A stretch of 40,400 bases of DNA from Planctomycetota bacterium (GTDB lineage Bacteria; Planctomycetota; Planctomycetia; Gemmatales; Gemmataceae): the NCBI GenBank assembly GCA_021809185.1, contig JAKBAI010000017.1:1-40400 (forward strand), written 5' to 3'. The first letter of the stretch is position 1, and the number at the start of each line of letters is the position of its first letter. Of this stretch, positions 21,333-40,206 are shown piece after piece. The translations under genes were made by a program, and so were the position numbers. Below the pieces are notes generated by a model. That model ran no database searches, was not told where the DNA came from, and saw nothing but the letters and a program-made list of their open reading frames with translations.

Positions 21333-24300
21333 ATGCAAACCACACCGCAAACCACACAAAATATGTCATTACCGTTATCAGATTATTCAAGAATAGCGCA
21401 GGATTTGCAGATTCGCAAATCCCAAGTTGAACAAGTTGTTCAACTATTGGATGAAGGCAATACTGTCCCTTTTATCACTCGGTATCGAAAAGATTTAACG
21501 GGTGGATTGGAAGAGGATAAGATTCGCCGAGTAAAATCTCGCTTACACGAGCTGCGCACTCTGAATGAGCGACGGAAGACCATATTAAAGGTTATAGAAA
21601 CTCAAGGGAAATTGACCGGGGAGTTGAAAAACCAAATTGAATCAACTGATTCAGCGAAGCGATTAGAGGACTTGTACCAACCCTTTAAACCAAAGAAAAC
21701 ATCCTTAGCAGGAAATGCAAAAGAAAAGGGTTTAGAACCTTTAGCTATTGCTATTTGGGAGAAGGATCAATCGTTAGGAGACCTTTCTGTTTTCATTCAA
21801 GGAATGGTTAATCCTGAAAAAGGCTTAAATACCCCAGAGGAGATTCTCTTAGGTGTACAGCACATTCATGCAGAAATGATTGCCGATAATGCCGATATTC
21901 GAGCTGCAATTCGCGAAATTGTCTGGGAATCGGGTCAATTGTTTTCAACGAAGACCGATAAAGTGAACTCTGAGAGGGGCGTGGAGTATAAAGATTACTA
22001 TGATTTCCATGAGTCAGCGAAGCTCATTCCCCCCCATCGCATTTTGGCTATTAATCGAGGCGAAAAAGAGGGATTCCTTACGGTTTCCGTCAAGTGGGAT
22101 ACGGAATTGTCGATTAACTCCGCCAAGAAATTACTTCCTTTGGAAAATCATCCCCACGCAGATTTGATCGTCAATGCCTTGAATGATTCTTTGGAACGTT
22201 TGATCTATCCGAGTATGGAACGGGAAGTCCGAAGCGAGCATCGTGATGCCGCACAGGACCATGCTATTGCCATTTTTGCTAAAAATCTTCGAGGTTTATT
22301 ACTTCAACCCCCCTTATCCAAAAAAAGGGTTTTAGCCATTGATCCTGGTTTTCGTCATGGCTGTAAATTAGCTGCACTTGATGAGTATGGAAACTTACTT
22401 GACCACACGGTTATTTATCCGCACGAAGTTCCTAATAAAAAAGAAGATCAAAAAACGCGAAAGTTGTTGGCAAAATTTGCGCTCGAGCGATTTATCCGTA
22501 AACATCAAATTCAGGTTATCGCACTTGGAAATGGGACTGCTTCACGGGAAACAGAGCATGTTGTTGCGGAATTGCTATCGGAATTAGCGGAGCGTAAGTT
22601 TGGTGAATTACCCCCAACCGAAGCCGAACCACCGGTTCCCTTAAAAGTATCAAAAACTGTTGCCACTACTGTTGCTACTATAGATGCTAAATCTGCTGCT
22701 GTTTCGCAACCCAGCGGAGAAAGCAACGGTACTTCCCATGCTACCTCAAATGCTACTTTACATGCAACTCCAGATGGCTTGCTTGTCTCGACCCCAATCG
22801 ATTCGGGAGTAGCGGCAGCTACATCTGCTGAAATCCAAATAAATCCTTTAGAAAATCAATTGGCTTCGAATTCATCTGATGATACTCCGAAATCAATTAC
22901 AGTTTCAAATGGGGAAACATCCTCCACTACGAGTGAAGTTTCAGTGCCCGCAATTGATTCGCCATCGTCCTCTGCCATTTCACCTCAAGAAAAGTCAGAT
23001 TCTATTGTTACTACTCCACTAATTACCACACCAGCCAATCTGACTTCTGATAGTTCTATTCCACCAGCAAATAGTTCATCGCTTGAACCTAGTTTAAAGG
23101 AATCTGGTTCTGGTCAGAATCCAATAAGCGGTCTAGAGAACTCCTCTTCGGAGCCTATTGGGAATGCAAATTCGGATTCTAGGGATTCGCATAACTCACC
23201 ATCTAACTCACCTGCTGTAGAAGTTCGTGAACCTTTGGAAAGTCTTCCACTAGCTTATAAGGAACTTGCTTACATAATCGTCAATGAAGCAGGGGCTAGT
23301 GATTATTCTGCTAGCCAGGTAGGTAGAGAAGAATTTCCAAATCATGATGCATTGGTTCGTGGAACGATCTCGATTGGTCGCCGTGTGCAAGATCCACTCG
23401 CTGAATTAGTGAAAATCGATCCTCAGCACCTGGGTATTGGCTTATACCAACATGATCTCAAAACAAAACAACTGAAACAATCATTGGATGAAGTGGTTGA
23501 AAGTGCCGTGAATTATGTCGGTGTCGATTTGAATACAGCTAGTTTTCCGTTGCTTTGCCATGTTTCTGGATTGAATCAGATGGTGGTACGGGATATTCTT
23601 GAATATCGTAAATCGAACGGGCCGTTTGCAAATCGGGATCAGCTCAAAGCGGTCCCAGGAGTGGGAGTTTCCCGATTTACACAGGCATGCGGATTTTTGA
23701 AAATTTCTCATGGAGACGAACCGCTCGACAATACCTGGATTCATCCAGAAAGTTATGCGGTCGCTAGACAAATTCTAGCAGAGCTTGGCTTTATCCCCGC
23801 TGATCTGCTCGATCAGGATCGATTAGCGAAATTGCAAGAGAAATTGCCTAGTGTGGATATCAACGATATTGCTACACGTCTCAATATTGGTACAGCAACT
23901 GTCCAAGATATTTGCGACAATCTACTAAAGCCGGGGCGAGACCCACGTGAGGATTTACCGAAACCGATTTTCAAGAAAGGCTTACTTAAACTCGAAGATC
24001 TAGTTCCCGGAATGGAGTTAAAAGGGACTGTCTTAAATGTTGTCGATTTTGGAGCATTTGTCGATGTCGGTTTGAAAGATAGTGGCCTGGTTCATATTAG
24101 TCAAATGGCGAGTCGATTTATCAAAAATCCATATGAATTGGTATCGGTAGGGGATATCATTACGGTGTGGGTGATGAAAGTCGAACTAGAGCGCAAAAGA
24201 GTGTCATTAACCATGATCTCTCCGACAAGCTCGAAACCTTCACCAAGTTCTCGGCATCGCGATAGCCATCGCCAAGAAAACCGTTCTGAAGGCAATCCAG

Positions 24301-25523
24301 AAAGCCGTTCAGAAAGCCGAAGTGGTAATCGTGGTAATGCCCGTAGAGGGGATGGTTCTCAACACCGGCCGCGCGAGCGATCTCGAGATGAGTTCAAAAA
24401 CCCAAATGAGCCAGGATCCCACTCCGCAGGATCGATGGAGTCTGGAACGGCGTCATCCAATGCTCCAACTCCGGGTAATCCAGGACAGATGGGGGACCGA
24501 TCTTCTGGCAAACGCTCTTACCCTCCGCGCCGATCTTTCTCCCAAGGAAATCGTTCTGAATCAGGCTCTTCTCATCCACCGAGACCAAGAGAAGGGGGAG
24601 ATAGTACTGGTAGTTCAACGAGTAGTTCCATGGGTGGTTCAACAACTGGTAGCGGAGATTCGAGTTCATCGGGTCGATCTTTCTCTGCGGACAATCGCGA
24701 ATCCTCAAACCGTCCTGGCTCTTTTAGAGATCGTCCTCCTCGCCATGATCAGCGCGGTCAGTCGCCTCGAGATAGAAATCGTTACTCGGAGCAATCGTCA
24801 ACTTCGCAACGAAACACCTCTTCGGGAGGAAAGGGCGAAATGGTTTATGATTCCAACCAACCAGACTCTGTTCATCCACAAGATCACAGAGATCGTGGTC
24901 GTCATCCATCTTCTCCGCGTGGCCCTCGCTACGAAGGACAGGATCGTACCCAGCGTCCGAATCTTAACCAACCACAGCCGAAAAAGCCACATAAACCGAA
25001 ATCACTCCCTAAATTGTCTCAGGAAGCATTGTCTGGTAAATCCCCTCTTCATACCTTTGGTGAATTAGAAGCATTCTTTAAAGCAAAAGATCCTGTTCCT
25101 GAATCTACTTCAGTTTCGATTCCACACCAAGCGGATGCGAGTAACCAAGCGAATGCGAGTAACCAAGCGAATGCGAGTAACCAAGTAGAATCGATTATTG
25201 CTGATTCACCAAAAATCTCTGGGTCATCTGAGAATATCTCGCATATATCAAGTGTACTTCCAACAGGATCGACATCGACTGACCATCTGGATTCAGTTTC
25301 GAAGACTCCTTCCATACCTATCTTTGTTTCAGAAACCACTCCTCCTGAAGGAAATCGATCGGATGATGGTGAATCATCGAATCATCGGTCTGAGTCTAGA
25401 ATTGTTTCTGAAACATCGATGGATCAGATAGGTTCTAAGGAACCAATTTCTTCCAGTTCCTCTACTTCTAGTTCCTCTACTTCTAGTTCTATTTCTGAAA
25501 ACGAAGAACCAAAATTAATTTGA
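21333..25523 (+). CDS. tex: Tex-family RNA-binding protein with large low-complexity insert and tail
   Basis: Tex proteins (about 770 residues) bind nucleic acid during transcription. The usual parts are here in order: N-terminal helical region, YqgF/RNase H-like domain beginning KKRVLAIDPGFRHG (about residue 330) with IALGNGTASRETE and, further on, YIIVNEAGASDYSAS; helix-hairpin-helix (ILEYRKSNGPFANRDQLKAVPGVG, about 750-790); and S1 domain (GMELKGTVLNVVDFGAFVDVG, about 889-963). Two additions make it 1396 residues: a Ser/Thr/Pro/Asn-rich segment at about 428-636 that splits the YqgF domain, and a tail from about 965 rich in Arg, Ser, Gly and Asn, then Ser-rich and acidic. No frameshift is seen. 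The start is uncertain: ATG 21333 or ATG 21363, both with poor SDs. Confidence 0.93.
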   Translation: MQTTPQTTQNMSLPLSDYSRIAQDLQIRKSQVEQVVQLLDEGNTVPFITRYRKDLTGGLEEDKIRRVKSRLHELRTLNERRKTILKVIETQGKLTGELKNQIESTDSAKRLEDLYQPFKPKKTSLAGNAKEKGLEPLAIAIWEKDQSLGDLSVFIQGMVNPEKGLNTPEEILLGVQHIHAEMIADNADIRAAIREIVWESGQLFSTKTDKVNSERGVEYKDYYDFHESAKLIPPHRILAINRGEKEGFLTVSVKWDTELSINSAKKLLPLENHPHADLIVNALNDSLERLIYPSMEREVRSEHRDAAQDHAIAIFAKNLRGLLLQPPLSKKRVLAIDPGFRHGCKLAALDEYGNLLDHTVIYPHEVPNKKEDQKTRKLLAKFALERFIRKHQIQVIALGNGTASRETEHVVAELLSELAERKFGELPPTEAEPPVPLKVSKTVATTVATIDAKSAAVSQPSGESNGTSHATSNATLHATPDGLLVSTPIDSGVAAATSAEIQINPLENQLASNSSDDTPKSITVSNGETSSTTSEVSVPAIDSPSSSAISPQEKSDSIVTTPLITTPANLTSDSSIPPANSSSLEPSLKESGSGQNPISGLENSSSEPIGNANSDSRDSHNSPSNSPAVEVREPLESLPLAYKELAYIIVNEAGASDYSASQVGREEFPNHDALVRGTISIGRRVQDPLAELVKIDPQHLGIGLYQHDLKTKQLKQSLDEVVESAVNYVGVDLNTASFPLLCHVSGLNQMVVRDILEYRKSNGPFANRDQLKAVPGVGVSRFTQACGFLKISHGDEPLDNTWIHPESYAVARQILAELGFIPADLLDQDRLAKLQEKLPSVDINDIATRLNIGTATVQDICDNLLKPGRDPREDLPKPIFKKGLLKLEDLVPGMELKGTVLNVVDFGAFVDVGLKDSGLVHISQMASRFIKNPYELVSVGDIITVWVMKVELERKRVSLTMISPTSSKPSPSSRHRDSHRQENRSEGNPESRSESRSGNRGNARRGDGSQHRPRERSRDEFKNPNEPGSHSAGSMESGTASSNAPTPGNPGQMGDRSSGKRSYPPRRSFSQGNRSESGSSHPPRPREGGDSTGSSTSSSMGGSTTGSGDSSSSGRSFSADNRESSNRPGSFRDRPPRHDQRGQSPRDRNRYSEQSSTSQRNTSSGGKGEMVYDSNQPDSVHPQDHRDRGRHPSSPRGPRYEGQDRTQRPNLNQPQPKKPHKPKSLPKLSQEALSGKSPLHTFGELEAFFKAKDPVPESTSVSIPHQADASNQANASNQANASNQVESIIADSPKISGSSENISHISSVLPTGSTSTDHLDSVSKTPSIPIFVSETTPPEGNRSDDGESSNHRSESRIVSETSMDQIGSKEPISSSSSTSSSSTSSSISENEEPKLI
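25132..25187 (+). repeat. 18-bp tandem coding repeat in the tex tail
   Basis: About three copies of an 18-bp unit encode repeated Ala-Asn-Ala-Ser-Asn-Gln. A 15-bp Ser/Thr-coding duplication lies further on near 25458-25490. Confidence 0.8.
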
Positions 25524-30225: not shown

Positions 30226-31695
30226 TTAACGATTTTTTTCTTTGGCAGAAATAGGTTTGAGAGGATTAAGAATGTCATTAATTTTTTTCATCGAAAGCGG
30301 TCGAACGAGGATGTGAATATTTTTTGTAGTGGGGAATCTACTCTTCCACTTGGCTTGATCTTCGGAGAGAATAGCAATCCCCGTGCATTTTCGTTTCGAG
30401 AATTCTGATTCGACCATAACCCGTTTAAATGCCTCGATCCCTTCTTCTCCAGTCGTACCTATATCGATCAGAATCACATCAAAAGGTTGTTGTTTGTAAC
30501 GCTGGACAGCGCGTTCGGCATCAATAGAAATCAAAACACGAAAACCATATTCTTTGAGTTTAGTTCTAAAGACATTTTGGAGCTTTTCATTAAGTTCAAT
30601 AACAAAGATAGTCCGAGGTTCAGAGGAATTAGTTTCTTCAGAAGTTCTAGAAGATTTAGGTGAGTTCTCTTCTTTGAGAACGTCAATTCCATCTAGAACC
30701 TCCTGAGGGTTTTGAAAGCGTAGGTTAGGATCAATCGCAACCATCTTCATCAAAAAGTTGTAAAGAGAGGGAGTAAAAATCGGGTCATCTTTCTCGATCT
30801 GTTTGGAAACATCGAAGCGAGCTTTCTGTTTTCGAGCACGAACATCGCGTGTGATTGAAAGTAGTGGTTTTCCGCTCAGCATTTGATAAAATACACACCC
30901 CAGAAAATAGATATCACTGCGAATATCTCCTGGTTTGCAGCTCGTTGCTTGTTCTAGTCCTGAATAGTCTACCGATTGATCGACCTGGAGTTCTCCGTCG
31001 ATAGTTCCTGCGGAAGTAGTGATTTCCGCTAAGCCAAAGTCAACAAGTTTGGAAATACCTTGAGAAGAGATTAAAATATTGGAAGGTTTGATGTCGCGGT
31101 GGGTCATTCCCCGAGAATACGCATAATTCAAGCCACTAGCAGCTTCATCAAGAATTCTTAGGGATTCTTCCGCGTTCATTTTTTTTCGAATGGCTAAGAT
31201 GTCTCGAAGATTGCCCCCTTCTACAAACTCCATAACGATGTAGTATTGCCCGGTTACTTGATCTCGATTGACGGCAAGGATGCTAACAATATTTGGGTGA
31301 CGAAGTAAAAGCCCTAGTTTACCTTCTCGTTCAAATAAATCGATCTTTTGAGAATTTTCTGACCAACGTCTTCGAAGGACTTTAATCGCGACGATTTCCC
31401 CTGTTTGAGGGTTATCACCACGAAAAACCCGACCAAATGTTCCTGCAGAAATTTTGTAGAGAAGACGAAAACCGCCCAGAAAATAGCCATCTCGATCCCC
31501 TTTTACGAGTTTACTAACTTGCCAGGGGGTAAGAACTGCTTTTCTTTCTAGGATTTTCACTAAGGCTTCGCCTGGAGCATTTTTACTTTCTAATTCAAAT
31601 TCAGCTTCGTGAATTTGTTGGGGGGTAGCTAAATTCAGTCGACTTATCATCGTGCCAAGTGTGACCGCATCTGGTAGAGACATAAGGCGCACCAT
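30226..31695 (-). CDS. Hanks-type Ser/Thr protein kinase with C-terminal pseudo-receiver
   Basis: The N-terminal 70 residues (LTPWQVSKL) are a prefix frequent in planctomycete kinases. The kinase domain (about 74-340) looks active: Gly-loop SAGTFGRV (83-90), Lys105, HRDIKPSN (199-206) and DFG (219-221). The usual APE is GLE (SGLEQA). After a Ser/Glu linker, residues 361-480 have the receiver fold: Asp411 is at the phospho-acceptor position and Ser444 at the switch position, but the acidic pair is Glu-Leu (367-368) and the conserved Lys is Arg465, so ordinary phosphorylation is doubtful. No membrane segment is seen. ATG at 31693-31695 follows GTGAG closely; an internal ATG (31683) is an alternative. 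Divergent from the FHA-STAS gene. Confidence 0.92.
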   Translation of the reverse strand: MVRLMSLPDAVTLGTMISRLNLATPQQIHEAEFELESKNAPGEALVKILERKAVLTPWQVSKLVKGDRDGYFLGGFRLLYKISAGTFGRVFRGDNPQTGEIVAIKVLRRRWSENSQKIDLFEREGKLGLLLRHPNIVSILAVNRDQVTGQYYIVMEFVEGGNLRDILAIRKKMNAEESLRILDEAASGLNYAYSRGMTHRDIKPSNILISSQGISKLVDFGLAEITTSAGTIDGELQVDQSVDYSGLEQATSCKPGDIRSDIYFLGCVFYQMLSGKPLLSITRDVRARKQKARFDVSKQIEKDDPIFTPSLYNFLMKMVAIDPNLRFQNPQEVLDGIDVLKEENSPKSSRTSEETNSSEPRTIFVIELNEKLQNVFRTKLKEYGFRVLISIDAERAVQRYKQQPFDVILIDIGTTGEEGIEAFKRVMVESEFSKRKCTGIAILSEDQAKWKSRFPTTKNIHILVRPLSMKKINDILNPLKPISAKEKNR

Positions 31696-31913
31696 CTCAC
31701 TTTAAAATTAATAATATCTACTTATTTTACCAAAAGGATCGAGAAGGATCAACCGGTGAAATAATTGAGAATAGGTAAAGGTTGGAAAAAAGTGTGAAAA
31801 AAATGACTATTCCTTAGAATTATTATAAATAGAGCTTGTAATTTAGTATGATTTGGAGATAAGATAAATTTAGATTCGAGCTAATTCATCCCCTTTAAGT
31901 GCGAGAAATCGTC

Positions 31914-32741
31914 ATGAAATTTTATTTAATAGTCGCCAAGGGAAAAAAACAAGGATTTCCAATCCCCATCGAGGTCGATTTGTTTCTAATTGGATCCTCT
32001 AAAGAATGCCAATTACGGTCTGTTCACGAAAAAATAGGAGATCAACATTGTGCTCTAGTAAAAAGAGAGCGGAAAGTATTCATTCGAGATTTAAATAGTG
32101 GAGAGGCGACACTTGTTAATGGGGACGTGATGCCACCAAGTGAAGAATGGCCCCTTCATGTTGGGGATTTGATTGAAATTGGGCCTTTGAAGTTCATGAT
32201 TCAATTTCGGGAGAAGGCATTATCGAGAAGAGATCTTGAAGAATGGGCTTTGAAATGCCTCGATTCCGATAGTTCTCGTAAAGTGGCAGGAGCGGAGCAG
32301 CTCGACCAATTGACTTCCTTTACCAAGGAAGCAGCGAATGCTTCAGAAATTGCGGAAGCTTTAATAAACAAATTAAATGCTCGAAAAGGGATCGTTAAAG
32401 GGAGATTACGAATTGCAAGAGAAGGAAATATCACCATTGTTCGAATTAATGATGTGTACATGGTCGAAGAAGCGGAGTTGAATCTATTAAAAAAGGAATT
32501 ACACGATAATTTAAATCGGCCAAATCTCCGTGTCTTACTCGATATGAAAAATGTCAAACGGATGTCTACTACGGCGGTTGAAATGCTTGGAGAATTTCAC
32601 GAATGGTTGAAATCCCAGGCTAGTCGATTGGCAATGTGTAGAATAAAAACAGATATTCAAGAGATGATTCTCAGTTTTGATCATCTTGAGGGGGTTAAAA
32701 TATTCCCTGATAAGCCAGCGGGGGTTCAATCGAGCTGGTAA
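31914..32741 (+). CDS. FHA-STAS domain protein
   Basis: Residues 1-98 have the FHA fold pattern but an altered phosphothreonine pocket: the usual G-R is Gly-Ser (27-28) and the S-R-x-H is Gly-Asp-Gln-His (42-45), while the NG of the last loop is kept (69-70). A helical linker (100-165) leads to a STAS domain (about 170-268) of the anti-sigma-factor-antagonist type, with MKNVKRMSTTAVEML placing Ser218 at the site phosphorylated in SpoIIAA-like proteins. It is probably a partner-switch or scaffold protein acting with a kinase. ATG 31914 is preferred over GTG 31899, because a GAGA lies 7 nt before it. Divergent from the kinase gene, about 200 bp away. Confidence 0.85.
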   Translation: MKFYLIVAKGKKQGFPIPIEVDLFLIGSSKECQLRSVHEKIGDQHCALVKRERKVFIRDLNSGEATLVNGDVMPPSEEWPLHVGDLIEIGPLKFMIQFREKALSRRDLEEWALKCLDSDSSRKVAGAEQLDQLTSFTKEAANASEIAEALINKLNARKGIVKGRLRIAREGNITIVRINDVYMVEEAELNLLKKELHDNLNRPNLRVLLDMKNVKRMSTTAVEMLGEFHEWLKSQASRLAMCRIKTDIQEMILSFDHLEGVKIFPDKPAGVQSSW

Positions 32742-35637: not shown

Positions 35638-38600
35638 TTATTGAGAATCAGTGCTGAAAAGATCGATTTTGTGATTATGAGCAGTACAAGATATTATATT
35701 TTTTTGGCAGAGGAGTCTCAACCCCTTCCATAATATTGAATTCTGATACTGACTATAATCTCCGGAGATATGTTCGATAAGTCGTTTAGAGGCAATCACA
35801 ATCAATCTCTGTTTCGCTCTGGAAAAAGCGACATTGGCCCGATTCAAATCGAGAATAAATTCCGCATTTTGTGTAATAGCGACTGGATCGCTGACCGTTG
35901 CTGAAACGATGATAGTTGGGCGTTCCCCCCCCTGCAGTCGTTCCACCGTATCGATAAGATCGATTGGTCGATTCTCGCCAAACCATTGGGCAAGTTCGGT
36001 TCGCAAAAGTGTTCGCTGGGCGCGGTGCGGGGTGATAATGGCTACTGAACCTGCTGGTTGTGGTAAGCCATGAATGAAAAGTTCTTTAATGAGCGATACT
36101 TCCAGTCGATTGGTCTGTTTCGATTCCTGTTCATCGTGGGCGAACCAATACAATCCAATGGGATCTAGCCAAGGGATTCGCCAGATTGTTTCTTGATTGG
36201 AATGATTGGAAGCGAATTCGCTAAGTCGATTTTTGGAGGATTGACTAGGTTGAGCAAAAGCGTTTGTATCAGGGCCTGTTAAAGTGATATTATCTTCGTA
36301 ATATACCGATTTAATCAACTCACGTATTATTGGTGGCAAGCGAAAAGATTCTTGCAAAACGGACATGGTTATTACCTGAGGGCCGAATCGGGATGAATGA
36401 TTTTCCTTAGAAGACAAAGAAGACAAAGAAGCTTTAGAATCTTTAAGAGCTGTGTTACCGGGATCGGAAGTCGATATCGATTCAGAATCTGTGCGTTGTT
36501 CTACTCGATTATTTTTCTGCAATCGGCGAATCGCTTCAAAGGCAGATACGTAAGGTTCATAGAGCCGATTGGATGGGCGGTCTTCGTTTTTCCAATCATG
36601 TGCCGTGATCGGTCTAAGCTGGCGATGATCCCCGGCTAACATAAGCAAACCGTTACTGCATAATAAACTCGAAAGAGCAAGAAAATGTGGGAATACCATC
36701 ATCGAGGCCTCATCCACTATCAACAACTTCGCGTTGATCCCTGCGGTATCCGATTTTTCATTTTGTTCGATCGTTGTTAAATTGATTGTATCTTTATGTA
36801 AATCCCCTAATTTCAGTAATGCAGAGGTCGTTCCGCCGATTACCAAAATTCGATCTTGGAGATAAGATCCTAATTTTTTTTTAGTTCCTAACTGCTGAAT
36901 CGATACTTTTTTAATGCAATTACCTAATGGTTCTTGATCAGGGATGCTGGTATAGACTTTTAACAATTTGATCGAATCTGGATCTACATTCTCTGTTTTA
37001 TTGATCCAGCTTTTAGTTTGCTCATCACGAGTATTGTGAATTTTTTCACCTAATTGGTGGTACTTAACATGCGTTAGAAAATGAGGTAAATACTGTTCAA
37101 TACGGAGTAAAAGTGTATCAATCGCTGTATGAGTGTGCGCAGCGACTAAAATGATCTGTCCAATCTCTAATTGTTCCATAGCTCGGACAAGGATTGCTAA
37201 TGCCGTTGTGGTTGTTTTCCCTGTTCCTGGTGGACCTTGTAATAACTGGATCCTTGTTTGTAAACCTGCTAATATAGCGGTTATCTGTTCTTGCCCAGCG
37301 GAAGATCTATTATGGGGAGGTAATAAAAAAGTTTGCAGAGTTTTATGCCATTGCTCCATTATGAATTCACTGGGACTATCCTTAATTGGTGGAATAATTG
37401 GCTCGATCGGATCAAACCAACGATAAATGGGAGTATCTTTCTGTAACGCTTTGTCTACCGAACCTGCCACAAAATCGGATATATTTTCATCCAAGGTAGC
37501 TTCTTGAAATTGAATTTTAGAAGTGCTTGACAACAAATAGTTGTTTTCATTGGCGGGTAGTAAGAATAATTCGACCGCTCCTGTTTTCCAATCGAGCGCT
37601 TGAACGATACAGGTACAACCTAGTGGACTTTTTAATTGTTCGAGGGACTGTGCCGACTTTTCGTTGCCGTGCCATGGAGTGAGCCGGGCAAAACTATCTT
37701 TACTGAAAATAGATCGATTCGATAAATCGGCTAAACTGATATTCCGAATGGAAGATAGTTTAATTTTAGCCTTTAAGATACTATTTTTATTAAACTCGAG
37801 CTGATGCAAAGGTAATGATTGCCCTTGAATAAACCGTTGTTCTGGAGGTAATAGATGATCATTAATCCACTTAGTGTATTTGACATGATGATCATATCGC
37901 AAAAATTCTAGGGCAGATAGACTGATCGATAACTTCTCTTGAAAGATTTTTTGCAAATCTTCAAGAGATACGGGGGGCTTTTTTATTTCTGGATTTTTTT
38001 CGAGTATTCGTTCTTCAAGCCATCTTAAAGCATGTACTTGTGCTCGAAAATATTCATGGAGCAATCCCGGTTTTTTAGCATTCAGATAATCTTTTTGCGA
38101 TTTAGCATCAAAAAAAGTGTTCTTTTCCTCCTTTACTTCTGTACTAGATCGAGCAGGTTGGGCACATTGGACAGGATTATCAAATAGATCCCAATAAGCG
38201 TACCAGTAGCCTGTGGGTAAAGTATCTCGATAACGAAAATAGATTTCATTCTGAGAATTATTTTCATGTTTAACTTGATTTGTCTTTGTATAGGCATCTT
38301 CGGAAATAAAGTCGAATATTCCGGTGCGTAATTCAAGCGCAAGATCTACTATTTCACCATGGCACCAACGAACCCAGTGATATTTTTCTTTGTCCCAATC
38401 GAGGGAGATAATGGCAGCAAGGGATCGACTGCAGATCGCTAGGCTATAATTGTCTTGAATCTCTTTTTGCAGCGACGTATAAATCAATTGATCTAAGTTT
38501 TCTCGGCAACCCAATAAAGCCATGACTCCTGTAAATAATTCATGATCTTGGCGAGACAATGCGTCAATCAATCCAGATAATTCTGACTCTTTCCAAACAT

Positions 38601-40206
38601 AAAAATGGATTTGAGCTTCCTTTTTGTTTGGTACCTCTTTGTGAATTCGTTGGATAAGTTGCTGAAAAAACTGATATAACATTTTCCCTTCTGAATTTAT
38701 ATCTTCTTCGTTGCCTATCCCGGGGTGGTCGATCAGAAAGATGATATCGTCATCGGCCAGGATATATTTTTGCTCGAGTTCATCGTGCTTAAGTTTAGAT
38801 TCATGAATAGATTCATGGAGAGATTCGGTTTGCTTTGGGAATCGTTTTGCCGTTATGGTTTCTTCATAAACTCCGGGTACCGCTACTCTCTGGTCTTCTT
38901 CTAATCGATAGGGGGTTACCACTCGATTGGTAGAAGAAGTAACGTGGGCAGCAAGAGCGATAATTCGATCTCCCAAAGTGTCGATCTCGATATGGAGATA
39001 AACTCGAATCAAATTCGTCCCTTGATGAGTATGGAGAGGCAACATCGATTTGCTTCTATTGCGCAATTTTTTGACTGATTTTATTGCATCTGCTTGGGGT
39101 AATCGATGGGAACTGTTAGGCTGTTTCGCCGATTGATGATTGGCTGATTCTAACTTGGTCAATTGTTGCGAGAAGACTTTTGCGCGGTCAAATAATTCTT
39201 CCCATTTTACAGTAAAACTTGGATTGCTCTTTAGCTTTTCGATCTCTTTGGTTGTAAAAATAGGGGCCTTGGCAAGCTCATCGATGGTGCGAATTTTTGC
39301 TTCATTTAATAATCGTGAATTTACTGGGTCAAGCCCCAGCAGTTCTAACCTTTTCTCTTGGGCACTTTCTAATGCACAAAAAGCACTGTAAGTACAGCTA
39401 TGGCATTTGTTACTGATTTGAAATGGGATTTTCTCAAAGGGACTAGCTAAAATCTGGTGCAACAAACCATCTTTATTAAGCAATAAGTCCAAATCGGCAA
39501 TTTCATGCTCATTTTTTAATCTCGGACTGTTTAATATCAATTGGTGGATTTTAGTATTTGTATCTAATTTTACGATGGCGGTATCGATCCTATCTATCTT
39601 ATGCCCGTGTAAAAAAAGAGGGTTGTTTTGAAAGAAGTGCTTAATGAGATGCTCGTAAACTCCCAGTTGAATTCGATGGTCTGTGCGCTCCGATCGACCA
39701 AGATGGCATTCGATAATTTCCAGAAACGGTTTGCCTTGCTCATCGAATTGTAGCAAGAGAAAATCAAATCTCCCTTTAATATGAAATTGGTTCCAATCTG
39801 CTTCGATCGCTATCTGCGAGTAGAACCCGGGGGATAAATCATCGATTTTTTGTAAATCTGTGACAATTGTTTCCCAAGTAAGTTGTTGGTGCGTTCCCCG
39901 TGTTAATGATTTTCCAAGGTTTTTTAGACCATTTTCTTCAAGTTCTTTTTCCCATTCTCCCTCTTTTTTTCTTAATAAGATATTGATGGTTGGGTCATTC
40001 CGTTGAAATAGATCGGTGTACGAAATATGTTTTGTCTCGCCATTACCAAGGTCTAGAATTCCCGAATCGAGATTTAATCGTTGCGAAAGATAAAATCGGC
40101 GTTGGCAGGCCTGAAAGCGAATGAAATTCCCCAGATCCGAAACATTCAGTTTGGTGAGTTCCTTCGATCTTTCTTGTTCAACATTTTCTGAGCTATTTTC
40201 GAGCAT
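35638..40206 (-). CDS. RecB-like Fe-S nuclease / SF1 helicase fusion (TM0106/Dna2-like)
   Basis: A 1522-residue fusion. Residues 20-280 form a PD-(D/E)xK-type nuclease with iron-sulphur cysteines C34, C268, C271 and C277; Asp148 (KGRFD), Glu166 and the Q-x-x-x-Y motif (Q180, Y184) are present, but the catalytic Lys position is His168. A helical region (280-350) and an RNase H-like domain (about 395-640) follow; its first acidic motif reads LHIEID, His405 replacing Asp. The C-terminal SF1 helicase is complete: GPPGTGKT (991-998), VDEAS (Asp1165), GDHRQLRP, ESFRLPP, LQGGERP and NVAFSRAK. It probably unwinds DNA or RNA-DNA in repair; a defence role cannot be excluded. Transcribed alone. Confidence 0.9.
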   Translation of the reverse strand: MLENSSENVEQERSKELTKLNVSDLGNFIRFQACQRRFYLSQRLNLDSGILDLGNGETKHISYTDLFQRNDPTINILLRKKEGEWEKELEENGLKNLGKSLTRGTHQQLTWETIVTDLQKIDDLSPGFYSQIAIEADWNQFHIKGRFDFLLLQFDEQGKPFLEIIECHLGRSERTDHRIQLGVYEHLIKHFFQNNPLFLHGHKIDRIDTAIVKLDTNTKIHQLILNSPRLKNEHEIADLDLLLNKDGLLHQILASPFEKIPFQISNKCHSCTYSAFCALESAQEKRLELLGLDPVNSRLLNEAKIRTIDELAKAPIFTTKEIEKLKSNPSFTVKWEELFDRAKVFSQQLTKLESANHQSAKQPNSSHRLPQADAIKSVKKLRNRSKSMLPLHTHQGTNLIRVYLHIEIDTLGDRIIALAAHVTSSTNRVVTPYRLEEDQRVAVPGVYEETITAKRFPKQTESLHESIHESKLKHDELEQKYILADDDIIFLIDHPGIGNEEDINSEGKMLYQFFQQLIQRIHKEVPNKKEAQIHFYVWKESELSGLIDALSRQDHELFTGVMALLGCRENLDQLIYTSLQKEIQDNYSLAICSRSLAAIISLDWDKEKYHWVRWCHGEIVDLALELRTGIFDFISEDAYTKTNQVKHENNSQNEIYFRYRDTLPTGYWYAYWDLFDNPVQCAQPARSSTEVKEEKNTFFDAKSQKDYLNAKKPGLLHEYFRAQVHALRWLEERILEKNPEIKKPPVSLEDLQKIFQEKLSISLSALEFLRYDHHVKYTKWINDHLLPPEQRFIQGQSLPLHQLEFNKNSILKAKIKLSSIRNISLADLSNRSIFSKDSFARLTPWHGNEKSAQSLEQLKSPLGCTCIVQALDWKTGAVELFLLPANENNYLLSSTSKIQFQEATLDENISDFVAGSVDKALQKDTPIYRWFDPIEPIIPPIKDSPSEFIMEQWHKTLQTFLLPPHNRSSAGQEQITAILAGLQTRIQLLQGPPGTGKTTTTALAILVRAMEQLEIGQIILVAAHTHTAIDTLLLRIEQYLPHFLTHVKYHQLGEKIHNTRDEQTKSWINKTENVDPDSIKLLKVYTSIPDQEPLGNCIKKVSIQQLGTKKKLGSYLQDRILVIGGTTSALLKLGDLHKDTINLTTIEQNEKSDTAGINAKLLIVDEASMMVFPHFLALSSLLCSNGLLMLAGDHRQLRPITAHDWKNEDRPSNRLYEPYVSAFEAIRRLQKNNRVEQRTDSESISTSDPGNTALKDSKASLSSLSSKENHSSRFGPQVITMSVLQESFRLPPIIRELIKSVYYEDNITLTGPDTNAFAQPSQSSKNRLSEFASNHSNQETIWRIPWLDPIGLYWFAHDEQESKQTNRLEVSLIKELFIHGLPQPAGSVAIITPHRAQRTLLRTELAQWFGENRPIDLIDTVERLQGGERPTIIVSATVSDPVAITQNAEFILDLNRANVAFSRAKQRLIVIASKRLIEHISGDYSQYQNSILWKGLRLLCQKNIISCTAHNHKIDLFSTDSQ

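What the first reader, a model, noticed from the sequence alone, without database searches (positions are those of the whole stretch)
35638..40206. Nuclease-helicase fusion with both nuclease sites altered but Fe-S ligands and helicase intact
The motif usually read D-x-K is E166-C-H168, and the RNase H-like first motif is H405-I-E. All four Fe-S cysteines and every helicase motif remain. The N-terminal half may have become a DNA-end or R-loop binding module, or use a different metal geometry.
Basis: partly seen in the sequence, partly recalled or inferred. Interest (0 to 1): 0.6.

Follow-up and report, generated by a model that had tools for sequence, protein, structure and literature searches.

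The report
Helicase-nuclease missing its catalytic lysine
A planctomycete DNA-unwinding enzyme of the Dna2/Bad type still has an intact motor, but its attached DNA-cutting domain has lost the one lysine that every other relative found keeps, so it may be a natural helicase that no longer cuts.

Summary

(1) PD-(D/E)XK site: E166 is normal (E in 38/38 close relatives). The only real change is K168H. All 38 relatives covering the site have Lys, as do 12 further Gemmataceae hits (partly the same loci) and the distant subfamilies. The codon is CAT, two base changes from Lys. The other metal and support residues (E82, D148, E166, Q180, Y184) and the four Fe-S cysteines remain.

(2) RNase H-like "H405-I-E": not a specific change. 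The column is S/A/N/T/V/G in relatives, so the Asp is missing across the whole family. The TM0106 comparison is also wrong: 26 bits against a 97.45-bit cut-off.

New result: the window protein deviates at 35/128 near-invariant columns in its N-terminal half but only 2/93 in the helicase (p = 9e-8). No other member shows this.

Best reading: a naturally nuclease-deficient Dna2/Bad-like SF1B helicase whose nuclease fold is kept as a metal/ssDNA-binding collar. Elsewhere the family sits beside m5C DNA methyltransferases (about 10 of 40 loci), suggesting a restriction-like ancestral role; here it is among housekeeping genes. No biochemistry, and one genome only.

The parts
35638..40206 (-). 1522-aa fusion protein: RecB/Cas4-like Fe-S nuclease domain, HhH-like linker, RNase H-like domain, beta-barrel/linker region, SF1B UPF1/Dna2-type helicase
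   Evidence: ORF; Pfam AAA_11/AAA_12/PDDEXK_1; orthologs over the full length
39307..40149 (-). N-terminal RecB/Cas4/Exo5-like nuclease domain (residues 20-300)
   Evidence: PDDEXK_1 E=3.6e-9; AlphaFold N-half pLDDT 80, pTM 0.83; Foldseek Exo5, SSO0001 (Cas4 fold), Cas4, AdnA
39703..39711 (-). Motif III E166-C167-H168: catalytic Lys replaced by His (CAT codon, 39703-39705)
   Evidence: Lys in 38/38 relatives and in 12 further Gemmataceae hits; codon
39763..39765 (-). Motif II D148 (metal ligand), conserved in 38/38
39655..39669 (-). Motif IV Q180-x3-Y184, conserved in 38/38
39376..39405 (-). C268-x2-C271-x5-C277: three of the four Fe-S cysteines
   Evidence: conserved in 39/39
40105..40107 (-). 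C34: first Fe-S cysteine
   Evidence: conserved in 36/36 that cover it
38287..39015 (-). RNase H-like (DEDD-fold) domain, residues 398-640, without DxE in the whole family
   Evidence: domain model pLDDT 69; Foldseek best hits RNase T, RNase H1, PolC exonuclease, weak E 0.026 and up
38986..38994 (-).
37327..38286 (-). Middle region (residues 641-960): helical part and predicted beta-barrel like the UPF1/Dna2 1B region
   Evidence: secondary structure; Foldseek matches to UPF1/Aquarius
35641..37326 (-). SF1B helicase core (residues 961-1522), all motifs intact, 2 of 93 conserved columns changed
37213..37236 (-). Walker A GPPGTGKT (991-998)
   Evidence: invariant in relatives
36703..36717 (-). 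Walker B / motif II VDEAS (1164-1168)

Best explanation
It is a planctomycete (Gemmataceae-like) member of a widely scattered family of Dna2/Bad-type helicase-nuclease fusions in which nuclease catalysis has probably been lost or strongly reduced. Shown: K168H, kept Fe-S and metal residues, intact helicase, and N-half-specific divergence. Inferred: in mouse Dna2 the equivalent Lys (K301) holds the attacking water and is buttressed by the motif IV Gln. With His there, metal and single-stranded DNA could still bind in the Fe-S-stapled nuclease ring, but hydrolysis should fail or be very slow. ssDNA would thread through the dead ring as through a collar (as in RecC) into the 5'-3' SF1B motor. Because active Dna2/Bad enzymes cut the strand they are tracking, which hides their unwinding, losing the cut would leave a processive helicase/translocase. 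The RNase H-like middle domain was already non-catalytic in the family's ancestor and probably serves as a scaffold or nucleic-acid-binding module.
For: Lys in 38/38 close relatives plus 12 further Gemmataceae hits. E82, D148, E166, Q180, Y184 and four Cys kept. No other Lys in the motif III strand; nearest are K144, K159 and K189. N-half vs helicase constraint: 35/128 vs 2/93 columns, Fisher p 9e-8, no other member significant; identity residual -3.1 SD; terminal branch 1.97 (nuclease) and 1.69 (N-half) vs 0.88 (helicase). AlphaFold N-half pLDDT 80, pTM 0.83: the nuclease fold is still predicted. Foldseek: Exo5, Cas4, AdnA. Literature: mouse Dna2 K301/Q314 role (PMC4716839); nuclease-dead Bad D150A unmasks unwinding (PMC7430649); RecC's dead nuclease domain as an ssDNA hoop (PMC1185551).
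Against: One genome only (a binned assembly with no second strain). No biochemistry. Some PD-(D/E)XK enzymes work with a replaced or migrated Lys (PMC1189080 lists Asn, Gln or acidic replacements and migration; His is not listed there). R171 is invariant nearby and K144 lies on the neighbouring strand. AlphaFold cannot judge catalysis, and the model was built from relatives that keep the Lys. Retention of the functional columns among the changed nuclease columns is only weakly better than chance (p about 0.09).
Confidence: 0.6

Rival explanations
1. The nuclease is still active: His168, or a migrated basic residue (K144, R171 or R174), takes the role of the Lys, perhaps with altered rate, metal or pH preference.
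For: All acidic ligands and Q180/Y184 are kept. Substituted or migrated Lys is known in the superfamily (PMC1189080). K144 lies on the strand next to D148.
Against: His is not among the replacements listed in that paper. K144 also occurs in L069 beside an intact K168, so it is no special compensation. Other near-invariant neighbours of the motif are changed too (S170G, D173E, Y176D), which looks like relaxation rather than tuning.
Confidence: 0.2
2. The gene is decaying: the N-half is drifting on the way to loss, and the helicase is only a lag behind.
For: Orthologs are broken in several Gemmataceae: G032 has two stops and no helicase, a second copy in G452 is split, Gemmata sp. IIL30 is frameshifted. 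The N-half has accelerated.
Against: The window ORF is intact over 1522 codons, the helicase has only 2/93 changed columns, Fe-S Cys and metal residues are all kept, and the fold is predicted with fair confidence.
Confidence: 0.15
3. The change is a sequencing or assembly error in a binned genome.
For: [quoted passage not shown]
Against: Lys to His (CAT) needs two base changes in one codon; neighbouring conserved residues differ as well and the frame is intact.
Confidence: 0.03

Closest known systems
Bad (bacterial DNA2-like helicase-nuclease, Geobacillus stearothermophilus; PMC7430649)
   Same: Fe-S RecB-type nuclease at the N-terminus, central region of unknown function, SF1B helicase at the C-terminus; scattered distribution; a DNA methyltransferase as neighbour in Geobacilli, as in part of this family
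   Different: Bad has an active motif III (D150); this family uses E-x-K and the window member E-x-H. The neighbouring methyltransferase is type III-like for Bad and m5C (PF00145) here. Direct sequence comparison not done (Bad sequence not in hand).
Eukaryotic Dna2
   Same: Nuclease with iron staple, beta-barrel and SF1B helicase; Lys301/Gln314 geometry; unwinding is masked by the nuclease
   Different: No RNase H-like domain; Lys kept; phmmer matches only the helicase (E about 5e-10)
TM0106-family RecB-like nuclease / helicase fusions (TIGR03491 + PF13482)
   Same: Same domain order RecB nuclease, RNase H-like, SF1 helicase (control protein L040/L091)
   Different: Window protein 26 bits and relatives 19-31 bits vs cut-off 97.45; no PF13482 match; no DxE anywhere in the family
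RecC nuclease-like domain
   Same: RecB-type nuclease fold without catalysis kept in a helicase machine
   Different: RecC lacks all features needed for catalysis; here only the Lys is gone and an Fe-S cluster is expected

Membership tests
TM0106 family (TIGR03491) | Score above curated cut-off 97.45 | tested here: not met
   26.2 bits; control fusion 289 bits
TM0106 family (TIGR03491) | RNase H-like domain with DxE (PF13482) | tested here: not met
   no PF13482 match, while the control has 107.7 bits and D-M-E
Dna2/Bad-type helicase-nuclease fusion (architecture) | N-terminal Fe-S RecB nuclease with four Cys in iron-staple spacing | tested here: met
   C34, C268, C271, C277 invariant; Foldseek Exo5/Cas4/AdnA
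Dna2/Bad-type helicase-nuclease fusion (architecture) | C-terminal SF1B (UPF1/Dna2-like) helicase with all motifs | tested here: met
   AAA_11/AAA_12; phmmer to SMUBP-2, Dna2, SEN1, UPF1; motifs
Dna2/Bad-type helicase-nuclease fusion (architecture) | PD-(D/E)XK nuclease motif complete | tested here: not met
   K168H; Lys in 38/38 relatives
Dna2/Bad-type helicase-nuclease fusion (architecture) | ssDNA endonuclease and 5'-3' helicase activity | not testable with these tools
   needs purified protein
Bad (Geobacillus) orthology | Sequence orthology to G. stearothermophilus Bad | not tested
   Bad sequence not in hand; only the published description was read
The 38-member family found here (A1 search) | Full-length homology and phylogenetic placement | tested here: met
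   tblastn over residues about 20-1518 at 30-43% identity; sister to the Planctomycetota clade in the helicase tree, support 96

The most novel reading that the evidence does not exclude
A lineage has converted a restriction-like helicase-nuclease into a pure processive DNA helicase: the nuclease ring kept metal, Fe-S and DNA binding but lost cutting, giving a natural version of the laboratory nuclease-dead Bad/Dna2 whose unwinding is unmasked, now serving chromosome maintenance rather than defence.
Probability: 0.25. Interest if true: 0.65.

Novelty: new variant of a known kind. Interest (0 to 1): 0.42.

Why it matters
In Dna2 and Bad the motor is hidden because the attached nuclease cuts the strand being tracked, and why the two are fused is not understood. 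A natural member that kept the motor and the iron-sulfur ring but lost the catalytic Lys would let one test whether the ring has a job besides cutting. The family-level result (a helicase-nuclease beside m5C methyltransferases in unrelated bacteria and archaea) also makes the published guess that Bad-like enzymes belong to restriction-like systems testable in culturable hosts.

Tried and rejected
The idea that both substitutions arose together: rejected, since the RNase H-like site is missing in the whole family. The idea that E166 is a change: rejected (E in 38/38). A clade sharing K168H: none found in 59 relatives, 398 genomes of the class, the GTDB-based genome-contig scan or plasmids. Viral contigs: no relative. 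The single-sequence scan of genome contigs found nothing, but the alignment scan did. PADLOC best match MkoA (Mokosh helicase, 144 bits) covers only the helicase core and was not taken as membership. Defence-island context for the window copy: rejected, since neighbours are SAM synthetase, TatC, DHQ synthase, EF-Ts, ribosomal protein S2, Tex, FtsH and uracil-DNA glycosylase. Search for a paper on 'PLuB' returned nothing.
Full report
What is there. One open frame on the minus strand at 35638-40206 encodes 1522 residues. Pfam finds PDDEXK_1 (residues 30-277, 3.6e-9) and AAA_11/AAA_12 helicase domains; phmmer against the PDB gives SMUBP-2, Dna2, SEN1 and UPF1 for the helicase. The gene starts 194 bases from the end of its 40,400-base contig (the window is the whole contig C381 of G000).

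Relatives. A single-sequence scan found nothing, but tblastn on plasmids found full-length orthologs in two haloarchaea (33-34% identity over about 90%), and an alignment-based scan of genome contigs then gave 38 loci from Gemmataceae, Cyanobacteria, Actinomycetota, Bacillota, Pseudomonadota, Myxococcota, Bacteroidota, Armatimonadota and several archaea. In the helicase tree the window protein is sister to the Planctomycetota members with support 96. A profile search of 398 genomes of the class found 12 more genomes with a hit, all in the same family.

The nuclease site. In 38 of 38 relatives that cover it, the motif reads E-x-K; D148, E166, Q180 and Y184 are invariant, and E82 is E in all 37 that cover it. 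Thus the E is normal and only the Lys is missing in the window protein. The 12 further Gemmataceae hits with a readable motif (partly the same loci) also have ECKAS, and the distant subfamilies that cover the site read D-M-K, D-L-K or D-V-K. The codon is CAT. The spacing E166-Q180 is 14 as in relatives; D148-E166 is 18 against 17 in most, with no other Lys in the strand. In mouse Dna2 the corresponding residues are D278, E299, K301 and Q314; K301 holds the attacking water and Q314 buttresses it (PMC4716839). The alignment to Dna2 residues is by motif, not by a direct structural superposition.

The RNase H-like site. The domain is probably RNase H-like: the isolated domain model (pLDDT 69) finds RNase T, RNase H1 and PolC exonuclease as best, though weak, matches. 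But its DxE is absent throughout the family: column 405 is S, A, N, T, V or G and column 407 D, E, S, T, G or H, while D409 is invariant. A genuine TM0106-type fusion in G034 has D-M-E and scores 289 bits against TIGR03491 and 107.7 bits against PF13482; the window protein has 26 bits and no PF13482 match. So the second 'substitution' is an ancestral feature, and TM0106 is the wrong yardstick.

Unequal constraint. Among columns at least 95% conserved in the other members, the window protein differs at 35 of 128 in the N-terminal half but 2 of 93 in the helicase (Fisher p 9e-8); the next member has 16/122 and 7/97 (p 0.12). N-half identity is 3.1 SD below that expected from helicase identity, all other members lying between -1.0 and +0.9. 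Terminal branches are 1.97 (nuclease) and 1.69 (N-half) against 0.88 (helicase). Fully invariant residues changed only here include G78L, R130S, G139N, K168H, S170G, D173E, R345F, E412G, W496G, G590A, T592C and W645V. Yet the fold is still predicted with fair confidence (N-half pLDDT 80, pTM 0.83; Foldseek Exo5, Cas4, AdnA).

Surroundings. In the window the neighbours are housekeeping genes. In the family, a C5-cytosine DNA methyltransferase (PF00145) recurs in about 10 of 40 loci of unrelated taxa: immediately adjacent and on the same strand in Microbispora L056, Cupriavidus L068, Alteromonas L071, Bathyarchaeota L082 (and L066 by the cluster) and Hymenobacter L083; a type II methyltransferase match 203 bases upstream in Methanoculleus L080; nearby, together with a SacI-type endonuclease, in Oceanobacillus L064 and Haladaptatus L047; and about 8 kb away in Halorubrum L048. 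It is not found next to the planctomycete or cyanobacterial members. No formal background rate was computed for this linkage. This parallels the methyltransferase neighbour reported for Bad (PMC7430649) and Dcm/type III linkages of Cas4-UvrD fusions (PMC5704561). An ancestral restriction-like or defence role is therefore likely (inference), with the window copy possibly reassigned.

Mechanism proposed. Steps shown by sequence: loss of the Lys; retention of metal ligands, Fe-S cysteines and motor. Steps inferred: metal and ssDNA binding without cutting; threading of ssDNA through the dead ring into a 5'-3' motor; unwinding no longer masked by cleavage, as shown for Bad D150A. Rivals are a working His or migrated basic residue, gene decay (relatives are broken in G032, G452 copy 2 and Gemmata sp. 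IIL30), and sequence error.

Limits. One binned genome; no second strain, so no dN/dS; no coordinates of the models were available, so active-site geometry was not measured; no biochemistry. The assignment to Gemmataceae rests on named relatives in the tree and on G-handle kinship; the genome itself is unnamed.

Noticed in passing
L056, L064, L066, L068, L071, L080, L082, L083, L047, L048: The helicase-nuclease family recurs next to C5-cytosine DNA methyltransferases in unrelated bacteria and archaea, twice with a SacI-type endonuclease as well: a possible methylation-linked restriction-like system.
   Followed up: partly
L032 (G032:C14), L129 (G452:C1), L088: Broken copies are frequent in Gemmataceae: two in-frame stops with the helicase missing, a frameshifted second copy beside an intact one, and a frameshift in Gemmata sp. 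IIL30.
   Followed up: partly
L062:7228-13185: In Planktothrix the family gene lies in one open frame of 1986 codons with an upstream stretch carrying a UvrD-like ATPase sequence; possible triple fusion or read-through of two genes.
   Followed up: no
L058:6831-8687: An ORF matching PADLOC pAgo (60 bits) lies 51 bases downstream of the family gene on the same strand in Aphanothece.
   Followed up: no
window 21333-25523: Tex-like protein of 1396 aa with about 430 residues after the S1 domain that match no Pfam family; usual Tex proteins are about half this length (own knowledge).
   Followed up: no
L050, L051: On two haloarchaeal plasmids a distant relative sits beside a pair annotated as RNase H-like protein plus DEAD/DEAH helicase.
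   Followed up: no
window 30226-31695: Protein kinase domain followed by a partial response-regulator receiver match in one 489-aa protein, next to an FHA-STAS protein (31899-32741).
   Followed up: no
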